A stretch of DNA of 64,000 nt, from assembly GCA_023627715.1 (NCBI GenBank), contig JAMAHW010000128.1, positions 1 through 64,000 of the forward strand, given 5' to 3'. Position 1 is the first letter of the stretch, and every line of letters starts with the position of its first letter. Of the stretch, positions 1-61,421 are shown piece after piece. The translations under genes and the position numbers were made by a program. The notes beneath the pieces were generated by a model. That model was not told where the DNA came from and ran no database searches. It was given only the letters and a program-made list of their open reading frames with translations. Origin of the DNA: Periconia sp. R9002 (taxonomy: Eukaryota; Ascomycota; Dothideomycetes; Pleosporales; Periconiaceae).

Positions 1-590
1 TTAGCTAAGAAAGGTCTTAGTTTATTCTAAGTTCTATTAAACTTTTCTATAGTTAGGAGCTTTAGTAGTTTCTTTATCGCGCTTAACTAGAGCTAATAAA
101 TAAGTATTAATTATTCTTACTACTTACCTAGTACTACTTTAAGTTGTGCTTTATTTTATTTAAGACTATCTTTTAGAACTTTATTTTATACTATTAAGGC
201 CTAGATAGTTTCTTTTATTTATTAATAATCTATATTATCTAATAAACGCACTAATAGAGCTGCTGCTCCTTTAGGTTATTATTTTAGTACTATTATTTAG
301 CTTAGACTATACGCTACTTACGCTTTACTCTCCTAATACTTAATTATTAAACTATTAGGGTCCTGCTTAGGCCTTAAAGTAGGATACTAAGTGGTGCGTA
401 AGGGGAGTAAATAGAAGTATAATATTATAAGATAAGGGTAGGATGTATAACCGTTAATAGGCACGATGTAATAAATTCTAAATAGTAGATATTAGATGTA
501 GGGTAGCTCTTTAGTTAAAAGATTAAATTAATAATAAAGACTATTTAAGGAGTGTAATATATGCTTATTATATACTAATAAAATTCCTAA

Positions 591-622
591 GCTCTATAGC
601 TCTATAGCTCTATAGCTCTATT
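591..622. repeat. Short tandem octamer repeat
   Basis: Four head-to-tail copies of an octamer reading GCTCTATA. An inverted partial match (TAGAGCTAT) follows about 25 bases later, so the transcript could fold back. It sits within the TA-rich block and is probably a simple microsatellite. Confidence 0.75.
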
Positions 623-2027
623 TACGTAGAGATAGTAGAGCGTAGAGTTATAGAGCTATTATATAATCTCTTATTACGTGTCTATATTATAGTCTGCTTT
701 AGGTCTAAGATTCTAGTCTTTATCTGTATAGTGCTACTTATAGTAATTATTGAAATTACACTTACTATAAGTGCTAAGAGTAATTCTGTGAGGCATAGCT
801 GTAATAAGATACTAGAATATTATTATTAGGTAGTTTAGTATTATTAAATTCTATAGTAGCTAGCTTAGAGTCCTCTTCTAAGCTAAAAAAAAATAAATTT
901 TATATATAGCTATTTTTTTCTTTTACGTTCTATATAAAATTTTATATAAAAAGCTACTTTTATAGTTATATAATAAACTCTTTAAGCTATAATTTTTCTT
1001 TTTTTATACTAACTTAGTTATTTTTTAGGCTAGTTATTTCTTCTACGTTACTTAGTATAGCTAAAGTACTAAGCTAATTAGTTACTACCTCTACTTTTTT
1101 ATATATAAGTTAGTTTATCTTTTCTATCTACTTATAGTCTACCTTATTTTAAAATTCTATAGGTAGGTTACTACTTATAAAATTCTATAGTATAGCTACT
1201 TACTTACTAAAGGTAAGTTATAGCTATATATTAAGTATAGATAGTACTCTATTATTATTATATAGTTTATTATTATTTTAAAAGTTAGATAAGCTTAAAA
1301 GTAATATAGGTAAAAAAGCTAAAGAAGTAATAAAAAGTAGCTAAAAGTATATTATAAAATATAGAAAAGAGTATATTAATTTTTAAGCTAGTAGAAATAG
1401 AGCTACTACTATCTATAGTAGTATAGTAGAATAAAGATAAAGTAGTACGTATAATATAAAATAAAAAAAATATATTCTAGTTTATCTTAAGTAATATAGA
1501 GGAACTAATATAGATAGTATAGCTTATTAATAATTAATAGGTATATATAGCGTGGGTTAATCTAAAAAGATATATAGTATAGTTTAAAAAAAGTAGAGTA
1601 GTATAATAAGTATAGAATGTAGAATAGAAGATAGGTACTATATATTTAGTACTAAGTAAAAATATTAAGGCCCTATATTTTAATTAGATATATTAGTACC
1701 TATTATACCTTCTAAGAATAGAATTTACTATTATAAATATTATAGTAGATAGGTTTTCTCTATTAGTTTTTTTATAAATATCTACTTTTATACTTAAGCT
1801 TTATAGTTTAATTACTATTTAGTTTTATTCTTTTCTACCTAGGTATAATTTTAATAAGAAGGTATTATATAGAATATAAGAGTTTAAAGTATAAAAATAA
1901 GTATAGTATAGGATAGATAGAATAAATCTAAAAATTTCTCTAGTTATATAGGAGAGTGTAATAGTTATTTATTAGTATAGTAGAATAAGTAAGTAGGTAA
2001 AGATAACCTCTATATTTCTTTAGTAGA

Positions 2028-2282
2028 TAGTTTAGTTAGCTAATAAATTCTATTAGTAGTAGAATATATAGTTTAGTTAGCTAATAAATTCTATTAGTAG
2101 TAGAGGTAGTAAAATATATAGTTTAGTTAACTAATAGATTTTATTAGTAGTAAGGCGTATAGTTTAGTTAGCCTATAGATTTTATTAAGTACTAAGGCGT
2201 ATAGTTTAATTAGCCTATAGATTTTATTAGTAGTAAAGCGTATAGTTTAGTTAGCTTATAGATTCTATTAGTAGAAAGGCTA
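2028..2282. repeat. Six-copy minisatellite (about 41-50 bp unit)
   Basis: Six imperfect direct copies begin near 2028, 2069, 2119, 2159, 2200 and 2241. Each starts with TAGTTTAGTTAGC or a close variant, followed by an ATAGATTTTATTAGTAG-like part. Differences between copies are mostly C/T and G/A, which fits RIP acting on an older tandem array. Confidence 0.8.
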
Positions 2283-2949
2283 TACTATAAACTTATCTAC
2301 TTTTAGCTTAGAAAAAGAGATAAGATAAGGCCCCTATAAAAGGATCTTAAGGGAGAATTTATATAGGAGAATTAATATCTAATTTTTTCTAAGTCCTACG
2401 CAGCCTACTTAGACCTAGACTTTAGGTAGTATCTCTATTTTTACAAGAAAGCTAAGTACTATAATATCCCTTATATTAAGTTTATATATAATCTCTATAG
2501 AAATATAAGTATAATAAGATATTATACTAGGTCTATAGCAGCTAGCCTAGTAGGTGTTATTAAGGCCGTCGCTGTCTTTTTATCTTTATTTAGTTTAGCT
2601 ATTTACGCTTAGTAATTTAAAAACCATTATTATTCTTAAGACAGTTTTTAGGATCTTAAATACTACGGCTATTATATTAATAGAACCTCTATCGCCTAAT
2701 ACTAGAAGAATAAAAACTACTGTAATTCTTTTATAAGCACCACTTGTTTAGTTTTAGGTCTAGATTAACCTACTACTATTTGCTATTAATAATTAAAGAC
2801 AGCCGGCTGCAATCCTTAAGGATAAGCATAATAAACCCTAGCGAATAATGCCCTCCGGGCGAATAACTAGGGCCTAAGCTAAGCAACTCATGGTTTACCT
2901 CTATCTAACTACTACCTGCGTTAGCCTTAGGATTAGCGGTATTAGATAA

Positions 2950-3480
2950 TGCGTTGCTCTAATAGCATTAGGGTTTATATACAACGACCTCAATCTCGCA
3001 GACTGGAGCTAGATAACCCGAAATTTAATTAACGGACTGGGCTTCTGCTGCTTCGCCTCTGGAGCGCTTGAGGTGGCCCTGGACATGCCACTAACACAGG
3101 AGCACCGTTTGATCCTGGAATGGCTTGGAATTATCGCTGCAGTAGTATTCTGCACGGTTCAGACCCAAGACATGGCTGACCAAGTGGGCGATCGGTTGCG
3201 ACGCAGACGATCCATGCCGCTAACGTTAGGCGACGGCCCGACACGTTGGATAACTGCGCTACTTATGATAGGTTGGTCCGTTGGCTGCGCACTTTATTGG
3301 GATGTGAACAATGTTGCATGCGTTATGACTGTGGTTTTGGGCCTTGCAGTTGCGTGGCGCACACTAGTGCAGCGCAGCTGCAAGTCTGACAAGGTTACAT
3401 TTCGCGTTTGGAATGCCTGGATGGCGATTCTGTACGCGCTTCCTTTGTTCGCAGCTGTTGCCAAACACCCTGCGATGTGA
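2950..3480 (+). pseudogene. UbiA-family prenyltransferase / UbiA-type terpene cyclase remnant
   Basis: Only the C-terminal half of a UbiA-fold integral membrane enzyme remains. Reading upstream from the stop at 3478-3480, the frame shows a YNDL segment, an RNLINGLGF segment, then the second Mg-diphosphate motif QDMADQVGDR and three hydrophobic helices. These match fungal UbiA-like enzymes such as the fumagillin terpene cyclase family. The frame is interrupted by TAG at 3010-3012, and the half that should carry the first Asp-rich motif merges into the RIP-like DNA to the left. The track ORF from 3073 starts on GTG, not ATG, so there is no real start codon. I infer a dead gene truncated at the RIP boundary. 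A live gene with an unseen upstream exon is possible but unlikely. Confidence 0.7.
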
Positions 3481-3651
3481 TAATGCTCCGTGAAGCTATA
3501 GCCGGACGTCGGGAAATGGCTCAATTGCGGCGACTCAATTTATAAGCACTTTGCTAGTATATATGAATAGACCAGGTGGCGTGCCGCAGTTCACACTTCG
3601 ACGCTTACTACAACCCACTACTAGCTCCAGGCTCACAGAATACACACGGTC

Positions 3652-4462
3652 ATGTCTAAGCCAGCTTTTGTACTTCTTCATGGTGCCTGGCACTCTCCAA
3701 AATGCTGGGACCCGCTCGTTGAAGAGCTCACGAAATCGGGTTATGATTCCGTTGCACCTGCACTTCCATCCAGCGGGTCCTCTCCTCCCACTCCTGACTG
3801 GTCGGCGGATATCGAAACAATCCGTCGAACTGTTTTTGAACTCGTGGAGAAGGAGCGTGACGTTGTCGTGGTTATGCACAGCTTCAGCGGCATGACCGGC
3901 GGTACGTCTCTGGATGGGCTTGACAAGGAGTCGCGCATCCAAGCAGGTTTGAAAGGCGGCGTTATAAGACTTATCTATGTTGTGGCCTTCCTAGTACCTG
4001 AAGGATTCCAGCACTCACAACAAGGCACTCGCGAAAACATGGTACCTCAGATGAAGACTGATCTCGAGGTGCGATTCATCCAATGGCATTGCGGTTAATT
4101 CCCTCTGACCCACTATCTAGGCTGGTACCATCACAGTGGAACCTGAAGACGTCAAGAGCATGTTCTATCAGGATTTGGACGACGATACCGTCACCGAGTT
4201 GACGAAGGAACTTCGTCCGCAGAGTTTTGGTTCTTTCTGGAGCAAGACTACTCATGCTGCTTGGCGCCACATTCCCACCACCTATATACTCTGCACTGCG
4301 GATGTACCGACGACGGTAGCTGCTGCCCAGTATCTCTATGAAACTGCAAAAGCAAGCGAACCGAACAAGATTGAAAAACTGATCAAGGTCGACGCTGGCC
4401 ACAGCCCCTTCATTAGCAAGCCTGAATGGACAGCGAAGACCTTAATCGAGGAGGCTAACTAG
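3652..4462 (+). CDS. Alpha/beta hydrolase (AB_hydrolase_6 type)
   Basis: Two exons, 3652-4068 and 4121-4462, separated by a 52-nt GT-AG phase-0 intron, give 252 residues, a normal length for this small cytosolic esterase-like family. The oxyanion-hole motif HGAW is at residues 10-13. The nucleophile elbow reads MHSFSG with Ser near 77, where GHSxGG is usual. The acid is probably Asp near 200 and the catalytic His is in AGHSPF near 233, so the triad looks complete. The start is the first ATG of the frame. It lies between the UbiA remnant and a methyltransferase; an ester- or lactone-processing role in the same pathway is inference. Confidence 0.85.
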
Positions 4463-50024: not shown

Positions 50025-53000
50025 CTACCCCAAAGTATTCCTAATGTACGTTAGTCTAGATGCTATTGCATTTTTAAAGAATTTCTTACTAGAGATTTGT
50101 GCATTGCCGGTGTCTTGAAGCCCCCACCGGCGATCTTCGTCTTCATCTTCTGGCGATTCAACACATCGCTCTAGGTGGACTTTATCAGCGCTAAAGAAGA
50201 GAAGATCAGATGATCGCCTACTTGCCTGTTCAATTGTACCTCTCATTACATATCGAATACACATGACCCGTTCGGTCTGCCCTATGCGCTGCGCTCTGGC
50301 CAAAGCCTGAAGCTCGAGAAATGGATTCCATTGTGGCTCAAGGAGGTAAATTCGCGTTGCAACAGTGAGGTTCAAACTATGCTTCTTAGTCGCAGTATTG
50401 AGTCAACAAATTGAAGCTACAAACCCCTCTGATCCCGTACCCAGAGTCATCAACAGAATGTTGGGTCCGAGCATGGACTTGTATTCCTTAAGCACCCTCA
50501 GTCTCTGCTTCAGGCTTAAGCTGCCGTGAATGATGTCGTATTTCATCCCTGAACTTTTGAGTAACTCTGACGCCATGTCAAGCGTTTTCTTCCATGACGA
50601 AAACACGATACTGACTTCTGTTTAGCTGATGGACCTATAATGCAGTCTTATCTCCCTACCATTTGTGCCCGGGGTCCATTTTTATATCGCGTAGAAGCGC
50701 TATGAGTTTTGATGGATATGGAAACGCGGCTTCCTGATGGATTGAACCAGTTGTGTCTGTGCCAGTATGATTGGCAAGATCTGGTCGCGCAATGTTTGAG
50801 GCACAGAGAGTGCAAGCTCTCTTCTTACCTAAACATTGTGGCAAGCAACTATGGCACACGAGATGTTTGCACGGATGGATAAACATACCTGCGTTCCTTT
50901 CCCCTACTGGATCAATACAGAAGATAGGTTCAGAACACTTCGCACATATATTCTGATCAAACTGCTGAAGATAAGAAAGAATTTCGTCATCTGACTCATC
51001 TAGTTCTCTCTGAATTTTTCTTGGGCCATTGTTGCAGAAAAGCCGTAGCTCGTGAATTGACTGGAGTGTAGTAGAGGCCACTTTGGTTTTGGTGACTCCA
51101 CTGACGGCCATTTGAACTTGCTTCCTATAATGCTCATACAGTTCGTCGTATTGGTACCGTTCCTGATCAGAGAATGACAAAATTCGCTGTTCGGCAATGG
51201 GTTCAGGCAAGCCAAGAATATCCCTTGTCCGCCTTAGACAAATTGTCTTCAGCAGGATCTGAAGGTTGTGGAAACCGGTACTCTTTTCTGACAATGTGGG
51301 TGCAATAATACAAGTGCGGAATACTGATGCCCGCTCCAAGTCTGGCACTCTCAGAAATGCGACGAGACTACCCAAATCCTCCAGTCGGTTTTGAATTGGT
51401 GTTCCTGTGACGCACCAGCGGCGTTGTGCTGAAATCTGCTGTACTGCCTGGAATTGCTTTGTCGTGCGATTCCGAATCTTGTGCGCTACACAGCATATCA
51501 TTAGTTACAACCTTCGAAACAAACATTGAGGGCTCCTAGCCTTCGTCCAGTACTATCCGAAACCAGTGAATTTTTGATAGTGGCGCCTGTCCTCGCTTGC
51601 TATCCTCCAATGCTGTCGCAAACGTAGTAAATACGACGTCTTTCTCCTCCAGAAGATTCACCTCCGATTGTCGGTCGCTTCCGATGTGCCTATGGAACGT
51701 GATTTTATGGGGATATGTGTGTCTGATCTTGTGAGTAGACGGTGTTAATACTAGGTGAATGGTGAAGAACCTACGCACGAATTTCATCGATCCAGTTGTC
51801 AATTAGAACTGCTATGAGTTAACAGGCTTACCACTCATTACGCTATATCTTATTCGATGGAGTTATTACCGGTGGATGGTACCATGATCAAGGTCGCTCT
51901 TGACGGTTTCCGACCACTTGATTTTCCGGCCGAGTCCTCCTTGAAGGCTGAAACAAAGGCCGAAGCGTCCTGGAGCGTGCGCGCGATAGCAGATAGAAAT
52001 GTTAATGACTTTCCAAGCCCCATATCATCCGCAAGGATCCCGCCTCGCGGTTCATTACGCTCTGAGGATTTGGCTTTGGTCAAAATATGTTGAAAACTAA
52101 GCACCAGTTCAGTTTATGTCTAGTTCAAGCCAACGAGTCTGTTAAGCTTACAATCTATCCCCGCGTATCCGCTTTTCTCGCCAGAATGTCAACCCTGTCG
52201 GCGGTTGCCCGCTTTCTCGCTGCATGATAAAATCGAGAGCCGTCATTTGATGCCTGATAAAGACATCAACACGTTGTTCTACGGCAAAAGGCAAGGCTCA
52301 CTTACGGCATGATCTGACTTTTGATTTTGTTGGCATCTGTTTCGATCTCATGTAGAATACTTGTATGAGAAAGAAGTGAGTTCAAAATGAGTTCTAACTC
52401 CCTCTCCGCAGATTGTGCAGTTGGTCTTGGGTCGCCTCGAGCTGGAGTACTTGGATCAAGAACAGGTGCGGGTGTCTCGTCTGGTTCGTTCATCTCCTCA
52501 TCAGATTTTTCGTCAAAGCCATCGAATTCCAGAATCTGAGGATTTAGATACTCTTCGTTGCCCACGTCATGGATGGGTATTTGCAGATATAAACCCGAAT
52601 GGAGAAGAATGTTCCCAACTTTGCCGGCATGGTGCCTGAAGCTGTACACATGTACATCAACAACGAAGGTTGCATTATTGTAAGGCTGCCATGAATCTCT
52701 GAATTTTTTCCAGTATTCGTAGTCCATGCACGCCTGGAAGCGGACACTGAAACCCACAAGTTGTCGAGCTTTCCTACAGAAGCTCTTGTCTAAATGTGCA
52801 AATGCGCTTCCTTCATTCAGGAGCTCAAAATAGTCGCCGATTTGAGATATTTCTAGCGCGATACTAGATTTCGGCGATTCAAGAAGCGGTGGAGAGGGAA
52901 AGAATCCCCTCGCGTGTTTTCGCAGTTGCGCATTCACATCAACGACCTGATGAAAGTAAGAATTACGGAGCTAGCCACTGTTTTTGTCGCGTTGGTTTAC

Positions 53001-53141
53001 CGAGCCTAATAAGCATAAAGGCTCATCGGTTACCGTTGAGCTAGGTACAATTGGTGGCTCGTCGAATGGTAAATGTATATCCTCAAATTCAGCTGGATAT
53101 GGGCGTTTGAGTGGCAACGAGTTGTAAGGCTCCCAGTCCAT
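50025..53141 (-). CDS. SNF2-family helicase with RING finger (RAD5/ULS1/HLTF-like)
   Basis: About nine exons that join in frame, giving roughly 880 residues. Motifs in order: DDMGLGKS (Walker A), DEAH formed by splicing, GTPIQNRLEDLGSL, LRRT, a RING finger (CAKCSEPI...HPCKHLVCHSCL...CTLC), then KCIVFSSW, LMTLGTGSEGLNLT and the QWNPFLELQALARAQRIGQ box. The RING embedded between the two ATPase halves is diagnostic for the RAD5/HLTF/SHPRH/ULS1 branch: DNA-dependent ATPases with ubiquitin-ligase activity in DNA damage tolerance. The N terminus is variable and lacks a HIRAN domain that I can see. The intron after DEA uses GC-AG (51486-51540). Start ATG at 53141 follows an in-frame stop. Confidence 0.88.
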
Positions 53142-54129: not shown

Positions 54130-55922
54130 ATGAAGGTTGATAATAAAATGGACAGCTCAAATCCAGAACCATATCAAGGCTGGGAAAAATATCCTGAGAA
54201 TGTTTCTCCGTACCTGCTGGACACAGACGCGGCTCGTAGCAATCGTCGCTTGAGTCAGCGGAGCAAAGAGCTTTTCGTCGCGAACCACGACTCCAAATTT
54301 TCGTACTTGGATTTAAACCAGCAGCACACTAGCATGTATCCTCGGCCTGAATTTATGACCGTAGCTAATTATTGGTTCCGAAAGATGGTTACCGCGATGT
54401 CAAAATACAGCAGATCCGAACAACAGAGCAAATGTTCGATATTCTGGCAGTACCTCAAGCCAACTCAGTATTGTCTGTGATGGTATCCTCCAATTGAATC
54501 GAAACTAACGGTGTACAGCTTCATCAATCAAAAACATTCATGGAGTCGCTTCAGTATCAGCGAGGAACATTTCCGTCGCTTGTTCACGCGCCTTCGAGTT
54601 CATCCGAGTTTTCTAGACGTCGTACACACATTCGGTGAAAAGATAGGACCAGTTGAAGAAGGCTTCAGTTCTTTTTCTGTGGATATTCGACCTGACTCAG
54701 CTTACATCAATCAAACAACTATCATCCAGGACTGTAGCTACTGTACTGGTATGATGCCCATACTTTACGTTCATATCTAACATTCTTCCAGATATCTCAT
54801 ACAACCTCAAGTACATTTCAAAGCACGGCCGAAAGTTGCCCAAGGATCCCTTCTCGATTAGAGAAATTGGCATATATCAACACTTTTCGAGTGCAGACCA
54901 TCGGTGTAGTTGGGTGTTGCTACAAGCCTCGGATCAGCTCAAAGAACGGCTGAGGAGAAGTTTCCAGTCTGACGAGCAAGCACTGCCAGCAAAGCAATTT
55001 TTGTTACATTCAATGATTATTCTAGACATATCTGAGGAGTGGCGAGAATATCTGATCTATCTGGAAGACCGATTCTCCGAACTAGTAAGTCTATGATACT
55101 ATATGGGGATGTTAAATCAATAATTTGTGCAGGTCGATAAAGGATTTTATACAAATGTCACCGGCCAGCATCTAGAAGGTGACATAGTTGCAGATTTCTC
55201 TGACACTAGGAGACTGCACATTTTAACCGACAAATTGCGGAGACTAGTCCAGATACTGAATCAAAATATTCGCATTGGGAACCATTTGAAGGTGGGGATA
55301 ACAAGAATTGCGAAAGCCTCGTCGCCAGCTTTGCGGTGTAGTATCGATCAGTTCCAAGCTAAAGTGGACAAGTTCTTGTTCGTACAGGAGACGAGTCTCG
55401 GGAGAATGGAAACACTGATCGCCCGATCTGGCGGGATCGGCCAGCTTGTACGTGTGAGCCTCGACTCAGCAACTTATTACTAATTTATGACCATGTAGGT
55501 GCAAAGTATTCAGGACATCCGAGCGGCGGAGGCAGGCAAGAAAATCAATCACGAGATGCGCAAGCTGACAGAGCAGGGCGTGGACGAAAACAAGCTGATG
55601 AAAAGGCTCACGGAACAAACAACACGGGATACGAGATCTATGATGGCAATCGCACTGATCTCTGCAATATTCCTCCCTGCCACGTTCTTGGCGGTAAGTA
55701 GCCCTTCGACAACAGTTGCATCCTAGCACGAGCACTGACAGGGATAAGACTTTGTTCGGGTCCAACTTTTTCGTTTTCTCTGAGGACCGAAACGCTCTGA
55801 CTGTGGCTTCCAATTTCTGGGTATACATTGTTATTGCGATTCTATCTTCCGGGGTAACGGTGATCATCTGGTTTGTGTGGAGGCGACGCAAGCTGAGGCA
55901 GCCTATCACTGAAGATGTATAA
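54130..55922 (+). CDS. CorA-like membrane protein (Mg2+ transporter superfamily)
   Basis: Six exons (54130-54476, 54519-54748, 54792-55084, 55133-55447, 55499-55693, 55749-55922) join in frame for 517 residues. A long cytosolic domain holds a predicted coiled helix (QETSLGRMETLIA, then VQSIQDIRAAEAG). Two C-terminal transmembrane helices follow: MMAIALISAIFLPATFLA, and VYIVIAILSSGVTVIIWFVW. The loop reads GSNF, where true CorA has the selectivity motif GMN, so cation transport is doubtful. Such fungal variants are common near HET and NLR genes. It lies 394 bp upstream of the NLR gene, on the same strand. Confidence 0.86.
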
Positions 55923-56316: not shown

Positions 56317-59300
56317 ATGGAGGGTGAAGTGCCGTGCATGGTTGCTCTCGACTACCTAGAATGCAGCGAAGTGAAGCCTGTCAGCGAGTGTGTACCGCCT
56401 GGTAGTGCTACATTTTACATTCCTGCGCGCAAAACCCGGGCCTTATTCGCAGAAAACTCCCATGGGTTGACACTGGAGGCTTTGTTCCTTTGCCCTTGCA
56501 AACGATGCGTGGAAGACGGTGGACCGGTGGATGAACGCTCAACAAGATTCAATAAGCTGAGGGAACAAGAGTTAAGAGGCGAATACGCTCTTATATATGG
56601 TTTGCTGATCTACATCCGAAGACCGGGACTCATCAGAAAATTTCAAAAACACGAACTCAAGCTGCAGGGGACGAATTATCTTCTAGAAGATGATTTTAAG
56701 AAGTTACACCTCGAAAATATCTCTAACCTTCCTCAGGTACAGAGGAAAGTAATAGATGAACAGTACAAGTTTCTCGTTCGAAAGCTACAACCATATTCCG
56801 ACATCACGGCTATCTCGGCAAAAGAAGTGCTACCAATCAATGAAGATCCAAACCCCAAGGGTAAGGGAAGTTTTGCCGAAGTGTGGTGTTTTGAATTTCA
56901 AGATGACGAATATCGTTCGCAAGAATTTGGAAAGGTAAATCCACCTACTCGATATTAAGCTACGATTCTAATTCCACAGAATATCACAAGATTTGCCCGA
57001 AAGATCTTCAATCGAAGCATGGTGAAATCGGCCGCGAAAGAATGGAACAATCTGCAACAGCTTTCAAAAGATGAGAATCATCCGAACTTAATGGTTGCAC
57101 TCGGCGCGTATTGGCATGGCAATATCTTCTTTATACTTCAAGAAGAAGCAGAGCAATCTCTCCTCGATTATCTCAAGGGAAAAGGTGACAAGTTTGAGTC
57201 CAAGGAACTATGGAAGCAGATGAAGGGAGTTGCTGACGGGTTGGCGACGCTCCATAATCTGTACAAAGGAACCAGGATCGCCTACCACCAGGATCTGAAA
57301 CCCGCGAACATACTAATAGTCAAACGAACATTGAAGATTGCGGACTTCGGATTGCTCGCATTCAAGCCCGTACCAAAGCCTGGAGAAGATGGTTCAACTG
57401 GGGTTCCAAAAGCCCACAATATTGACTATTACACTGCTCCCCGGCGGCGAACATATACTCGTGATTCGGACATCTGGTCTTTGGGATGCGTCATGTCAGA
57501 ACTTGCTACTTGTGATTTGCAAGGACGAGATGAGTTTTCAAAGTACAGGAACGATCGCGCCGTTGGTGACACTCCACGATTCTTTTCTGGAGAGGCTGTC
57601 AAAGCCTCAGTTCTGCAAAAACACGATCTGCTTTACAACTTGGTACAAACCAAAGGATCTTCAGCCGGGAATGCCCACATAACCGATTTCCAGGACCAAT
57701 TCTATGTCAGAGAATTTTTTATTCTCCTTAACAGCATGTTAGGGCATAGACTAGGTCTTGGGAACTCACCACAAATTACAAATGAGGTTGCCGTGCCCGA
57801 TGCAGGTTATGTTGCTAAAACTATCGAAAAACTGCTCAAAAGGGCAATACGCGAAACCGCGCTCGATAACGGCTTTGAAGATCTCAATCTAGGGCAACAA
57901 TGTCTGGAATTCGCAACTCTTGATCTGTTATTTGAAAAGCATCTCAAAAGTTTTATGAATGCTTTGACCGAGAGGAACAGACCTAGGTTTTCCGTTACAA
58001 CTCTAACTAACTTGAAGCAATATATTGTCAACCTTCAAGCCAAGCAGCAAAGAGATCGTCGCCAGCGAGGCTTTGCACGTCTACGTTCGTTCCTAGAACG
58101 ATTCGAGGAAGTCGGTGAAATGATCAAGGAATCGCCTGATGCGATGAGATTCATGGGCTGCATCTGGGTACGCAAAATTCATCCCAATAAGCAAACCTAT
58201 GGTTGACAATCCTTAGGGGCCAGTCAAACTCGTACTTGAGGTATGATTTACTCATTAGTTATTTTTTTGACATGTGTAAATATAAGAAACAGGCGACCGA
58301 AGAACACCCTGATGTCTCCCATGAAATTCTTTCCCTCTACGAGCAAATTGGAAGAAACCAACCATCCGCTTCCATGTACAAAGAACTGCCCGTTACTCAG
58401 GTAGACTTGACACAAATCTTATCTGAGGCATTCAGGGACGTAGTAGAGGTGAACAAATTGCTTGTTCTTTACTTCCAGCAACGACGTAAGCTATCTACTG
58501 CATGCTTCGTCCAACATATTTCTTACCCAAATCAGTGTGGACAGAAATCTACGCCACTACATGGAGTCGACACAAACCAAAGTTATCTGGTATAATAGCT
58601 CGCATGGTATCACGTTACAATCTTGTGAGCAATAAAGCAAGTATCTCCCAGTTCGACCTTTTCCTAACCGAGTCTACAATTCAAGAAGGGCAGCGTTTTT
58701 CAATGACCGACGTCGAGAACTTGGGTCGTATGCAGGCGGTGAATGCTTGGCTGAAACCGACAGATTTGGAATTTGAACAGGAATTCTTGATGGAAGTGCG
58801 AGCTAATTACCCCGAAACTTGTCGCTGGCTCTTAAGAGACGAAACATTCGATGAATGGTTTGATCCGCAGTGCACAGCAACAACATCACCAAAAGTGCTG
58901 TGGCTCAACGGGAAACCTGGTGCTGGTAAGAATTCACACTTGTCGTTATTTCAATCCCAAAGAGCTGTAATATTTATATCTCGGCACCAGGTAAAACGGT
59001 TCTCGCATCTTTGGTCGTGGAAAAGGCAAGAGCACTGCAACCAGCCCCCACGGTTCTGTTCTTCTATTTTAAACACGAGGATAACGATCGAAATAATTTC
59101 CTTTCCATGGCTCGAACTTTACTGATGCAAATCATCAAGCAAACCCCGCTTGCCCTCGATTATTTCTACAGTAAATGTTGCGACAGCGGAGGGGTTCCGC
59201 TCAATTCCCGCGCACCAATCGAAGAGCTCCTCGCTTTCGCATTGGGAAATTGCACTTCAGCATATATTATACTGGACGGCATAGATGAGTGTCAGTCAAG

Positions 59301-61421
59301 AAAAGAAAAAGGTGACGTGGTGGAATGGTTTCGCCGTTTGGTTGAAACACAACCTGCCGACAGCAGCGATCGGCTTCGTTGTTTGTTCGTAAGCCAGGTT
59401 GACAGTGCGCGGAAAGACTACAATCATCTTCCGAGCATAACAGTGGACTCTTATAATAATGAGGAAGATATAGAGTCTTTCAGCAAGACGAGATCTGCAC
59501 AGTTGGTGAAGAAACTGAAAATTTCGGTGTACGAGGCAAACGACATAGCTGCCTCCGTCTCTGCGTCAGCTGAGGGTAAGTTTGAATCCTCTCCCAGAAC
59601 TGTCAGGCTACTGAGTCCAATTTTAGGCAATTTTCTATTTGCTCATCTGATGTGGATTAACCTTTGCGGACAGTCCTCCATCGACAGTTTAGACCAGGAG
59701 ATCAAGTCGTTCCCACACGATCTCGATAAGCTCGATTCATTGTATAAAATACACCCCGTTCTTTGCGTGTCTTTCAACTAATCACTGTTCAGATACTCCC
59801 GTATAATGAACACTATCATTGGAAAACCCGTTCCTGCAGAACGTGAAGAAGCGTTGATGGTTTTGAGCTGGCTTGTCTGTGCCAAGCGATCACTGAAGAT
59901 GCATGAAATACAAACGATGAAGTCAATCAATCTGGAGAGGAGAGTCGTTGACTTCGAAAGGCGACAGTTCAGAGTCGATCTCAAGGATCTTTGTGAATCC
60001 CTGGTAAATGTACGCAAGGATAATACAGTGGAACTGGTCCACATGACTGCGAGATCGTAAGAACCCCACGTGTGTGAGATGCTCAAGCAGCGGACTGACT
60101 GTGCTGTAGGTTTTTAGCCAACAGCAAGTTTCTTGATACGATAGTTGAGGAGCTAAGACTAGCAACATTGTGCATTGACTATTTGAACCTACCGTCGTTT
60201 GACGCACCTTACGACCAGCAGGCAGTTTTTGCTGGCGAGTATGGACTTATGGAATACGCTATCATTTATTGGGTACGCCACCTAGAAGCAGGTTTGAAAT
60301 CCTCCAGTTCTGAGCATGAAGAACTTCACGAACACCTTACGGAATCCCTTGAGATACTTATCCAACAGCACTGGAATAATCCGCAGGACGACGGTCATCG
60401 TTCTATCTCGAATCGCACCAGAGTCATGCTTGAGACGTTCAGTGGCAGCGAAAAGTACTTGCAAATACAGCTAGCGTTTACATTAACCGACAAGGAGCTG
60501 AAAAACTTCGGGAATTCGCAACCCAATCAATCCGCCCTAGACTTTGCCACAACGGTTTCTGCAGTTCGACACTGCATCGAGACAGCCGTCCACAACGTTC
60601 GTGACCAGCATACTAGGGATGATCTAGAACGCAAGTACGGCACCCACATGTTTAAGTGCCCGAGATTCAGCTGCAGGTACTTCAACGAAGGCTTTCCCAG
60701 TCCCGATGAACGCGATAAACATATCGAAAGACACGAGAGGCCATTCCGCTGCATAGATGATCACTGCAGAGGCTCCAAAATTGGATTCGCGACAAAAGCA
60801 CATCTCGAAAAGCACTGCAGAGAGATTCATCCGGACACAATAGAGCACCACGATTTTCCCACGGAGGAAGAAATCAACGAGAGCATGAACGATGGTCTAC
60901 CAGAACCTGAAGCGGAACCTGATCCAGAACCTGAAAACGAAGAAGCAAACAATGATCCCGCGCCTCAGCCCAATATTGTTGTGCCGGAACAGTCTGTGGC
61001 TCCAGCCCAACCTGAAGTGACCCCAGTAGTGAGGAACGAAGCACTCCAATTGACACAAACGAGAGAAGCCGTCAAGCGTCGAAAGTCAAACCAACCTTAC
61101 GAATGTTCTCATTGCGACAAGAAGTTCAATAAAAAATTTAACTGGCAGTCGCATCTTAAGTCACATGGTGAAGGCGAGCAACTTCAATGTCCGCATTGCG
61201 ATGCAACGTGCAAAAGATCCGGAGACCTCGCGCGCCATATAAGATTGCATGATCCAGAATATTCTGTTACATGTGGTGGAATCTTATTGAATGGGCAACG
61301 ATGGGGGTGTGGACAGACTTTTGCAAGGGCTGATATACTGCGTTCCCATCACTTATCCAGACGAGGTAGACAGTGTATCGCACAAAGAAATAGTAGTAAG
61401 CAGGCAGACACTCCAGTATAG
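56317..61421 (+). CDS. Kinase-NACHT-C2H2 multidomain NLR-like protein
   Basis: Nine exons (56317-56934, 56980-58167, 58217-58240, 58293-58485, 58536-58925, 58991-59575, 59627-59741, 59793-60056, 60110-61421) keep one frame for 1,562 residues. Residues 1-180: N-terminal region with CPCKRC. About 181-480: protein kinase with Gly loop GKGSFAEVW, lysine in FARKIF, catalytic HQDLKPAN, DFG. About 560-790: the helical domain that precedes NACHT in fungal NLRs, with GCIWGPVKLVLE split over an 8-codon exon. About 799: Walker A GKPGAGKT; about 895: Walker B YIILDGIDE. C-terminal part: two Cys/His fingers near 1306 and 1335, an acidic Pro/Glu linker, then C2H2 fingers from 1455 on. The NACHT oligomerises after a trigger; the kinase could be an effector or decoy and the fingers a recognition module. 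Those roles are inference. Two adjacent genes remain possible. Confidence 0.85.

What the first reader, a model, noticed from the sequence alone, without database searches (positions are those of the whole stretch)
56317..61421. Single-gene fusion of protein kinase, NACHT NTPase and C2H2 zinc fingers
Every exon boundary I placed is GT-AG and holds one frame from the kinase to the last zinc finger. The 8-codon exon 3 sits exactly at the kinase/NLR join. Seen: intact kinase motifs, Walker A and B, at least four Cys/His fingers. Known: fungal NLRs join varied N-terminal effectors and C-terminal sensors to NACHT, and NACHT-C2H2 architectures occur. Inference: a non-self sensor whose output is phosphorylation, or one that uses the kinase as bait. 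The whole combination is one I have not seen described in detail.
Basis: partly seen in the sequence, partly recalled or inferred. Interest (0 to 1): 0.88.

Follow-up and report, generated by a model that had tools for sequence, protein, structure and literature searches.

The report
Fungal kinase-NLR with transcription-factor zinc fingers
A fungal gene makes one long immune-receptor-like protein that joins a protein kinase, a nucleotide switch and zinc fingers that look borrowed from the calcium-response transcription factor Crz1, a combination that would let fungal receptors be tested for the 'decoy' trick known from plants.

Summary
The observation largely holds: nine exons, eight GT-AG introns, one 1,562-residue frame with kinase, NACHT, winged helix and zinc fingers. 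One detail is wrong: exon 3 is not the kinase/NLR join. It lies inside a DUF7708-type helical domain, and kinase-less NLRs share its motif. The join is upstream in the unbroken exon 2, which argues against two genes. Six relatives carry the same order (one model lacks the last fingers). With eight N-terminally cut models, the fused rows form one fully supported 15-row clade, suggesting a single fusion. The kinase keeps its catalytic residues but is non-RD (HQD). Its N-terminal CxCxxC domain has no Pfam family. There are five fingers. The last three resemble the DNA-binding domain of a transcription factor whose relatives include named Crz1/crzA proteins, down to its odd C-x11-C finger; that factor is intact in this genome. 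Five NLR genes here, this one included, lie divergently near related SNF2 genes. Best reading: a kinase-effector NLR with a Crz1-derived sensor or decoy, possibly nuclear. Function is inferred only. It is a new variant of a known kind: kinase-NLRs and C2H2-NLRs are in print.

The parts
56317..56811 (+). N-terminal all-helical domain of unknown family (residues 1-165) with conserved CxCxxC (LCPCKRC, residues 58-64)
   Evidence: No significant Pfam or PDB sequence match for 10 of 33 segments tried; C59, C61, C64 identical in 27 of 27 rows; helical with high confidence in the model of relative P0024
56833..57801 (+). Protein kinase domain (residues 173-480, split by intron 1 at 56935-56979); G-loop 182-189, Lys214, Glu227, HQD 309-311, DFG 328-330, APR 359-361
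57802..57930 (+). Linker (residues 481-523) where kinase and NLR parts meet, inside exon 2
   Evidence: Free-standing kinase relatives lose similarity at 460-503, kinase-less NLRs begin at 522-533
57931..58732 (+). DUF7708-type helical domain (residues 524-740) across exons 2-5
   Evidence: Pfam 19.8 bits, below cut-off, residues 596-712; helical in the model of relative P0008
58217..58240 (+). Exon 3, 24 nt, encodes GPVKLVLE
   Evidence: motif in 7 of 8 fused rows (absent from the Bipolaris maydis model P0006) and in 3 of 7 kinase-less models
58814..59628 (+). NPHP3_N/NACHT NTPase (residues 768-1000), Walker A 58910-58998 split by intron 5, Walker B 59263-59292
   Evidence: Pfam 118.2 and 36.0 bits; model of P0008 matches CED-4, NLRP7, NOD2 and NRC4 among other AAA+ proteins
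59629..60152 (+). Winged-helix domain (GPIID_WHD) region, residues 1001-1140
   Evidence: Pfam 32.2 bits, 1058-1132
60657..60830 (+). Zinc fingers 1 and 2 (residues 1309-1366)
   Evidence: Sequence; also in the kinase-less NLRs P0015-P0020
61074..61088 (+). Basic cluster (KRRKS) before finger 3, candidate nuclear localisation signal
   Evidence: [KR][KR]x[KR] in 16 of 19 arrays against 168 of 2,388 windows of the same proteins; localisation not shown
61104..61376 (+). Crz1-type three-finger array (fingers 3-5, residues 1458-1548), last finger C-x11-C ... H-x8-C
   Evidence: Profile of Crz1-type domains 78.7 bits; closest non-NLR protein of the genome is its Crz1-like factor; reciprocal
50100..53141 (-). 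Divergent neighbour: SNF2-type gene with a RING-like stretch below cut-off (limits approximate, read by eye; Pfam-confirmed piece 50659-51504)
   Evidence: SNF2-rel_dom 100.3 bits, zf-RING_5 21.6 bits under its cut-off of 27.9; divergent pairing at four other NLR places of this genome

Best explanation
It is a fungal STAND/NLR receptor with a built-in kinase output and a sensor taken from the Crz1 transcription factor. At rest the NACHT-winged-helix module would hold the protein shut. The C-terminal Crz1-type array, on DNA or as a look-alike of Crz1, would register interference with the calcineurin-Crz1 pathway, or foreign factors or nucleic acid that bind it. Exchange of ADP for ATP would then let the NACHT domains assemble and bring the DUF7708-type helical domains and non-RD kinases together, and trans-phosphorylation of targets would start a defence or cell-death response. 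Shown by sequence: one frame with this domain order, intact catalytic and nucleotide motifs, one-clade ancestry of the fusion, relationship of the array to a Crz1-type factor. Inferred: kinase activity, assembly, nuclear site, what is sensed, and the outcome.
For: Gene model and domains. Same order in 6 other proteins, five with the array (P0003's model lacks it): four named Dothideomycetes, one named Leotiomycete (class placements recalled), one unnamed source. NLR tree, 22 rows: 15 rows (7 fused, 8 with N-terminus cut in the model) on one branch, support 100/100, 7 kinase-less rows outside. Kinase tree, 33 chosen rows: 18 on one branch 100/100, of which 2 free-standing. Catalytic residues in 16 of 16 fused or cut rows; HQD in 16 of 16, while 11 free-standing relatives carry R 4, L 4, G 2, Q 1. 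Kinase 58-62% identical to the six full-length relatives, NACHT 53-62%. Crz1: the genome's C63 gene is the best non-NLR match of the array (38%, E 1.7e-18); four of its 120 listed relatives are named Crz1 or crzA (P0230, P0245, P0254, P0258); in reverse the C63 domain's best matches besides itself are the two NLRs C2 (92.8 bits) and this gene (70.8), above the next zinc-finger protein (62.8). A profile of 118 such domains gives 78.7 bits here and up to 133.8 in NLR P0020, against 66.1 and 34.0 for two other zinc-finger proteins of the genome. C-x11-C third finger: 118 of 120 C63 relatives, 18 of 20 NLRs.
Against: No expression, activity or localisation data. The margin of the Crz1-type profile for this very protein (78.7 against 66.1) is modest. 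The name Crz1 for C63 rests on four named entries and on my recall of Crz1's third finger; at least six of the 120 listed carry another automatic name ('C2H2 type master regulator ...', cut off in the listing) and most are unnamed. DNA-contact residues kept in the array are also found in the C30 zinc-finger protein (sequence), so they do not prove Crz1-like target choice. The APE glutamate is lost (R in 15, C in 1 of 16), which can weaken a kinase; one row, P0026, also has N for the Lys two residues after the catalytic Asp. The array is not hypervariable (49-62% in the five full-length relatives that keep it), unlike the repeat sensors of fungal incompatibility NLRs (recalled). Pfam finds no ANK, TPR or WD40 repeats.
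Confidence: 0.5

Rival explanations
1. The array is a working DNA-binding domain rather than a bait: the receptor sits at Crz1-type promoter sites and acts there, as a nuclear regulator.
For: At 7 of 12 canonical contact positions (helix -1, 2, 3, 6 of three fingers) the Crz1-type residue is kept in 18 or 19 of 19 NLR arrays; of 6 non-contact positions (helix 1 and 5) the best reaches 13. Helix position 4 was left out as structural (Leu of finger 3 is kept in 19 of 19). Basic cluster before the array in 16 of 19. The paired neighbour gene is of the SNF2 family, known for acting on DNA.
Against: The other five contact positions differ: finger 1 position -1 (K 17, R 2) and 2 (Y 7), finger 2 position 2 (H 2), finger 3 positions 3 and 6 (Crz1 residue not among the commonest three in either). 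The kept residues also occur in the C30 zinc-finger protein. No transactivation domain is recognised.
Confidence: 0.3
2. The kinase is the bait and not the output: an integrated kinase decoy watched by the NLR.
For: PKinase domains at the C-terminus of nine Sordariales NLRs were proposed as CHK2-derived decoys (PMC12258605, section 14 read). Loss of the APE glutamate.
Against: The kinase is N-terminal, the usual effector place; its closest relatives outside the fusion clade are free-standing fungal kinases with the same N-terminal domain, such as Aspergillus nidulans AN9302; the catalytic residues are conserved in 16 of 16.
Confidence: 0.15
3. Two adjacent genes, a kinase ending at 58206 and an NLR starting further on.
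For: Database models often split here: the tails of P0024, P0027, P0028, P0030 and P0031 look like reading past exon 2 into intron 2; P0002, P0009, P0010 and P0012 start with residues of the linker; P0014 and P0029, and P0011 and P0026, lie on contigs of equal length.
Against: The split cuts the DUF7708-type domain, whose exon 3 motif is also in 3 of 7 kinase-less NLR models; exon 2 runs unbroken from kinase into NLR; six models are full-length. DNA of those other contigs could not be fetched, so this is protein-level evidence.
Confidence: 0.06
4. A decaying or silent receptor of no present function.
For: No expression data; the related C26 locus shows a stop within its zinc-finger match, which may be an intron.
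Against: No stop or frameshift in 1,562 codons and conservation in every domain against six relatives.
Confidence: 0.05

Closest known systems
Fungal NLRs with N-terminal PKinase (Dyrka et al. 2014, PMC4986451; section 11 read, and passages)
   Same: Kinase as N-terminal domain of a fungal NLR; PKinase is one of its 12 N-terminal classes, among those under 1%
   Different: 'zinc finger' and 'C2H2' do not occur in its main text; here the kinase brings its own N-terminal domain and sits before a DUF7708-type domain
Sordariales NLRs with C2H2 fingers or kinase (PMC12258605, section 14 read; passages)
   Same: 34 NLRs with C2H2 fingers and 12 with PKinase in that study
   Different: Nine of its 12 kinases are C-terminal and CHK2-like; a Crz1 origin of the fingers is not mentioned in the section read
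Plant RRS1 (integrated WRKY domain) and AtWRKY19/AT4G12020 (WRKY plus kinase) (PMC5067614, passages)
   Same: NLR carrying the DNA-binding domain of a host transcription factor family; AtWRKY19 also carries a kinase
   Different: Unrelated domains and kingdom; the decoy role is shown for RRS1, only proposed here
nwd2/het-S of Podospora anserina (PMC4344463, passages)
   Same: NLR gene divergently transcribed next to a partner gene
   Different: The partner there is a pore-forming protein joined by a prion motif; here a SNF2-type gene, and in the window another gene lies between
P0023, Fusarium graminearum (Pkinase-HeLo-NPHP3_N-DUF7791)
   Same: Kinase ahead of a second N-terminal domain and a NACHT
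   Different: HeLo instead of DUF7708-type; no zinc finger in the Pfam scan
Crz1/CrzA-type transcription factor (own genome C63)
   Same: Three fingers with a C-x11-C third finger
   Different: No NLR or kinase part in the factor; whether the NLR keeps any other Crz1 region was not tested beyond the fingers

Membership tests
Fungal NACHT NLR (STAND) | P-loop NTPase with Walker A and B | tested here: met
   GKPGAGKT 800-807, YIILDGIDEC 896-905; NPHP3_N 118.2 bits
Fungal NACHT NLR (STAND) | Winged helix after the NTPase | tested here: met
   GPIID_WHD 32.2 bits, cut-off 27
Fungal NACHT NLR (STAND) | C-terminal sensor, often ANK/TPR/WD40 repeats | tested here: inconclusive
   Zinc fingers in that place, no repeat family in the Pfam scan
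Fungal NACHT NLR (STAND) | Nucleotide-driven oligomerisation | not testable with these tools
   needs biochemistry
Protein kinase domain (Pfam Pkinase) | G-loop, VAIK Lys, alpha-C Glu, HxD Asp, Asn, DFG | tested here: met
   16 of 16 fused or cut rows
Protein kinase domain (Pfam Pkinase) | Catalytic activity | not testable with these tools
   needs an assay
Non-RD kinase | Residue before the catalytic Asp is not Arg | tested here: met
   Gln in 16 of 16; link of non-RD kinases to plant immune receptors from PMC3411088, passages
Canonical activation segment ending in APE (not claimed here) | APE glutamate | tested here: not met
   Arg in 15, Cys in 1 of 16; Glu in only 1 of 11 free-standing relatives
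Crz1-type DNA-binding domain | Two C2H2 fingers plus a C-x11-C third finger | tested here: met
Crz1-type DNA-binding domain | Reciprocal best non-NLR match within the genome | tested here: met
   (the C2 NLR is closer to the C63 factor than this one)
Crz1-type DNA-binding domain | Binding to calcineurin-dependent response elements | not testable with these tools
   needs a DNA-binding assay
Crz1-type DNA-binding domain | Calcineurin docking motif | not tested
   only a glance at one stretch, see Tried and rejected
NLR with integrated decoy | Extra domain related to a cellular protein that still exists in the genome | tested here: met
   C63 factor, 722 residues over two joined exons
NLR with integrated decoy | An invader's factor acts on both the domain and its source protein | not testable with these tools
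   no effector known

The most novel reading that the evidence does not exclude
This is the kinase-armed member of a two-gene nuclear recognition system of fungi: an NLR with a DNA-binding domain copied from Crz1, encoded back to back with a SNF2-type (Rad5-like by eye) partner, which together guard the calcineurin-Crz1 pathway or nuclear DNA and trigger a kinase-driven response.
Probability: 0.2. Interest if true: 0.85.

Novelty: new variant of a known kind. Interest (0 to 1): 0.62.

Why it matters
Integrated decoys of transcription factors are established in plants. A fungal NLR that carries a Crz1-type DNA-binding domain, with the intact factor still in the genome, makes the decoy idea testable in fungi. 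The fused kinase offers a measurable output. The repeated divergent NLR/SNF2 pairing points to a partner gene to test. The case also shows that database models often cut this gene in two or drop its 24-nt exon, so the class is likely undercounted.

Tried and rejected
Fold of the N-terminal domain: a profile of 10 of the 33 segments at hand gave nothing below E 0.33 in PDB sequences, and Pfam gave two weak matches, each in 1 of 10 members, best E 0.012. The query protein itself was not folded, only relatives P0024 and P0008.

Second kinase-NACHT fusion in this genome: two same-strand kinase and NLR pairs, at C165 and C104, were read and look like separate genes. The kinase family search scored 121 of 294 candidates and did not list the window's own kinase, so it is not exhaustive.

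A 58-residue stretch shared with a protein on C143 (72%) was set aside. A PxIxIT-like stretch in the spacer (PNIVVP) was seen by eye and otherwise only in P0002, and was dropped. Contact residues as proof of Crz1-like target choice: rejected because the C30 protein shares them.

Rows left out. P0003 and P0016 show no array by the pattern (P0003's model ends early, P0016 has a shorter third finger). P0021-P0023 were not in the zinc-finger comparison; P0022 and P0023 were not in the NLR tree. P0021, the root of that tree, is a long branch with a warning from the program. The kinase tree used 32 of the found proteins plus the query; one search had listed 120 of 158 hits, among them many pieces of about 310-440 residues from metagenomes (most of P0035-P0072) that were not examined. 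Venturia effusa P0032, with kinase and a partial NPHP3_N, was counted as fused in the kinase rows only.

Of the 8 cut rows in the NLR tree, 4 start in the linker (P0002, P0009, P0010, P0012), P0011 and P0014 share a contig length with a kinase model, P0008 and P0013 are undecided. Exon 3's motif is missing from 4 of 7 kinase-less models (P0018-P0021), which may be skipped exons or real absence.
Full report
Gene. The window is a piece of a 42.9 Mb assembly in 267 contigs, fungal by its gene structure and relatives. The start matches those of relatives such as P0001 and P0003. Pfam finds Pkinase, NPHP3_N/NACHT, GPIID_WHD and C2H2 fingers above cut-off, and DUF7708 at 19.8 bits, below its cut-off of 25.

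Where the join is. Free-standing kinase relatives stop matching at residues 460-503 and kinase-less NLRs start matching at 522-533. Both points lie in exon 2, part of one unbroken frame. The 24-nt exon 3 encodes GPVKLVLE; the kinase-less NLRs P0015, P0016 and P0017 carry WGPVKLLL, WGPLKLLL and WGPMRLLL there, while the models P0018-P0021 lack it. Among eight fused rows seven have it and P0006 does not. So exon 3 belongs to the NLR's DUF7708-type domain. The tails of P0024, P0027, P0028, P0030 and P0031 look like reading into intron 2.

Relatives and history. The full-length search gave 23 proteins. Six besides the query carry kinase and NACHT over 93-100% of its length: Alternaria tenuissima P0001, A. 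alternata P0003, Periconia digitata P0004, unnamed P0005, Bipolaris maydis P0006, Oculimacula yallundae P0007; P0003's model lacks the last three fingers. A tree of the NLR part with 22 rows puts 15 rows (7 fused, 8 with cut N-termini) on one branch with 100/100 support and 7 kinase-less rows outside. A tree of the kinase part with 33 chosen rows puts the 16 fused or cut rows and two free-standing ones (P0033, P0034) on one branch with 100/100. This fits one fusion with later losses. In this genome no other place matched residues 1-155 of the query, and the next kinase match is 30% identical.

NLR core. The model of relative P0008 (mean pLDDT 78.7) matches AAA+ and STAND proteins, among them CED-4, NLRP7, NOD2 and NRC4; the first rows also hold FtsH and origin-recognition proteins. 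Identity to the six full-length relatives is 58-62% in the kinase, 53-62% in NACHT, 35-52% in the DUF7708-type part and 28-40% in the linker.

Zinc fingers. There are five. Fingers 1-2 are shared with kinase-less NLRs. Fingers 3-5 have a third finger with 11 residues between its cysteines. The closest non-NLR protein in this genome is a 722-residue serine/glutamine/asparagine-rich factor on C63 (38%, E 1.7e-18). Of its 120 listed relatives (1,468 found), four are named Crz1 or crzA; several are named 'DNA-binding transcription factor', at least six carry the automatic name 'C2H2 type master regulator ...', and most are unnamed. I take it as the Crz1 orthologue from the four names and from recall of Crz1's odd third finger. 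In reverse the best matches of its finger domain besides itself are the NLRs on C2 (47%, 92.8 bits) and in the window (38%, 70.8 bits), then C30 (62.8). A profile from 118 such domains scores 78.7 bits here, 67.7-133.8 in 19 of 20 listed NLRs (P0003 scores -0.2), 89.6 in the C2 paralogue, and 66.1 and 34.0 in two other zinc-finger proteins. The C-x11-C pattern is in 118 of 120 C63 relatives and 18 of 20 NLRs. The direction (Crz1 to NLR) is inference from the wide spread of Crz1 (recalled). Among 19 arrays, 7 of 12 contact positions keep the Crz1-type residue in 18 or more, and the best of 6 non-contact positions reaches 13. The C30 protein shares these residues, so this speaks for retained DNA binding in general. 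A basic cluster precedes the array in 16 of 19, against 168 of 2,388 background windows.

Neighbour. A SNF2-type gene lies upstream on the other strand; its RING-like stretch is below Pfam's cut-off. Of 19 SNF2-family places found with it in the genome, 5 have a NPHP3_N gene in divergent orientation within 9 kb (C128, C2, C26, C61, C108) and the other 14 have none within 15 kb. Random placement on one 42.9 Mb line expects 0.16, and the highest of 20,000 trials was 4. The window's pair prompted the test, and the places are paralogous, so they are not independent. No Crz1-type match was found at C61 and C108, so the pairing is not tied to the Crz1-type array. In the window another + strand gene lies between the two; two pieces of it gave no match at C2 and C26. 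The nwd2/het-S pair of Podospora is also divergent, 0.6 kb apart (PMC4344463, passages).

Literature. N-terminal PKinase is one of 12 classes in fungal NLRs (PMC4986451, section 11 read); C2H2 fingers and mostly C-terminal kinases are reported in Sordariales NLRs (PMC12258605, section 14 read). A search for NACHT with Crz1 and fungal gave one paper, unrelated by its title; others (8 of 23 listed; 12 of 13 listed) showed no such link in titles and starts of abstracts; 'SNF2' and 'helicase' do not occur in the two fungal NLR papers searched for them; DUF7708 gave no paper. Supplementary files could not be opened, so an entry of this domain order in a table cannot be excluded.

Verdict. A real, conserved kinase-NLR, most likely one gene, with a zinc-finger array related to Crz1. 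It is a new variant of a known kind. Output by phosphorylation is the favoured reading; whether the array is decoy or DNA reader is open.

Noticed in passing
window 50100-53141 (-); L051, L052, L049, L050: Divergent pairing of SNF2-type genes with NPHP3_N NLR genes at five places in this genome, 5 of 19 against 0.16 expected; DUF7708 was seen by Pfam at C2 and C61
   Followed up: partly
P0034 (Alternaria incomplexa, 854 aa): N-terminal domain and kinase with HQN instead of HQD, fused to a second kinase: a tandem kinase protein
   Followed up: no
L035 3516-3680 (C143): 58-residue stretch 72% identical to the spacer and finger 3 of the NLR inside a different long open frame
   Followed up: partly
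L041 (C165), minus strand: TPR-like protein ending in a kinase domain, about 2 kb from a HET-like, NB-ARC-like, TPR gene on the same strand (domain names by eye)
   Followed up: no
L042 (C104), plus strand: Kinase gene 2.6 kb upstream of a NACHT gene, apparently separate genes
   Followed up: partly
window 54400-55922 (+): Multi-exon gene with hydrophobic C-terminus, CorA-like by eye; two pieces gave no Pfam match and no match at C2 and C26; it lies between the SNF2 gene and the NLR
   Followed up: partly
window 1-4000: G+C 32% against 45-49% in the rest
   Followed up: no
L052 (C26): A related NLR with a partial Crz1-type match holding a stop in frame; may be an intron or decay
   Followed up: no
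database models P0002, P0006, P0009, P0010, P0012, P0024, P0027, P0028, P0030, P0031: Gene models of this class are often cut in the linker or at exon 2, or skip the 24-nt exon
   Followed up: partly
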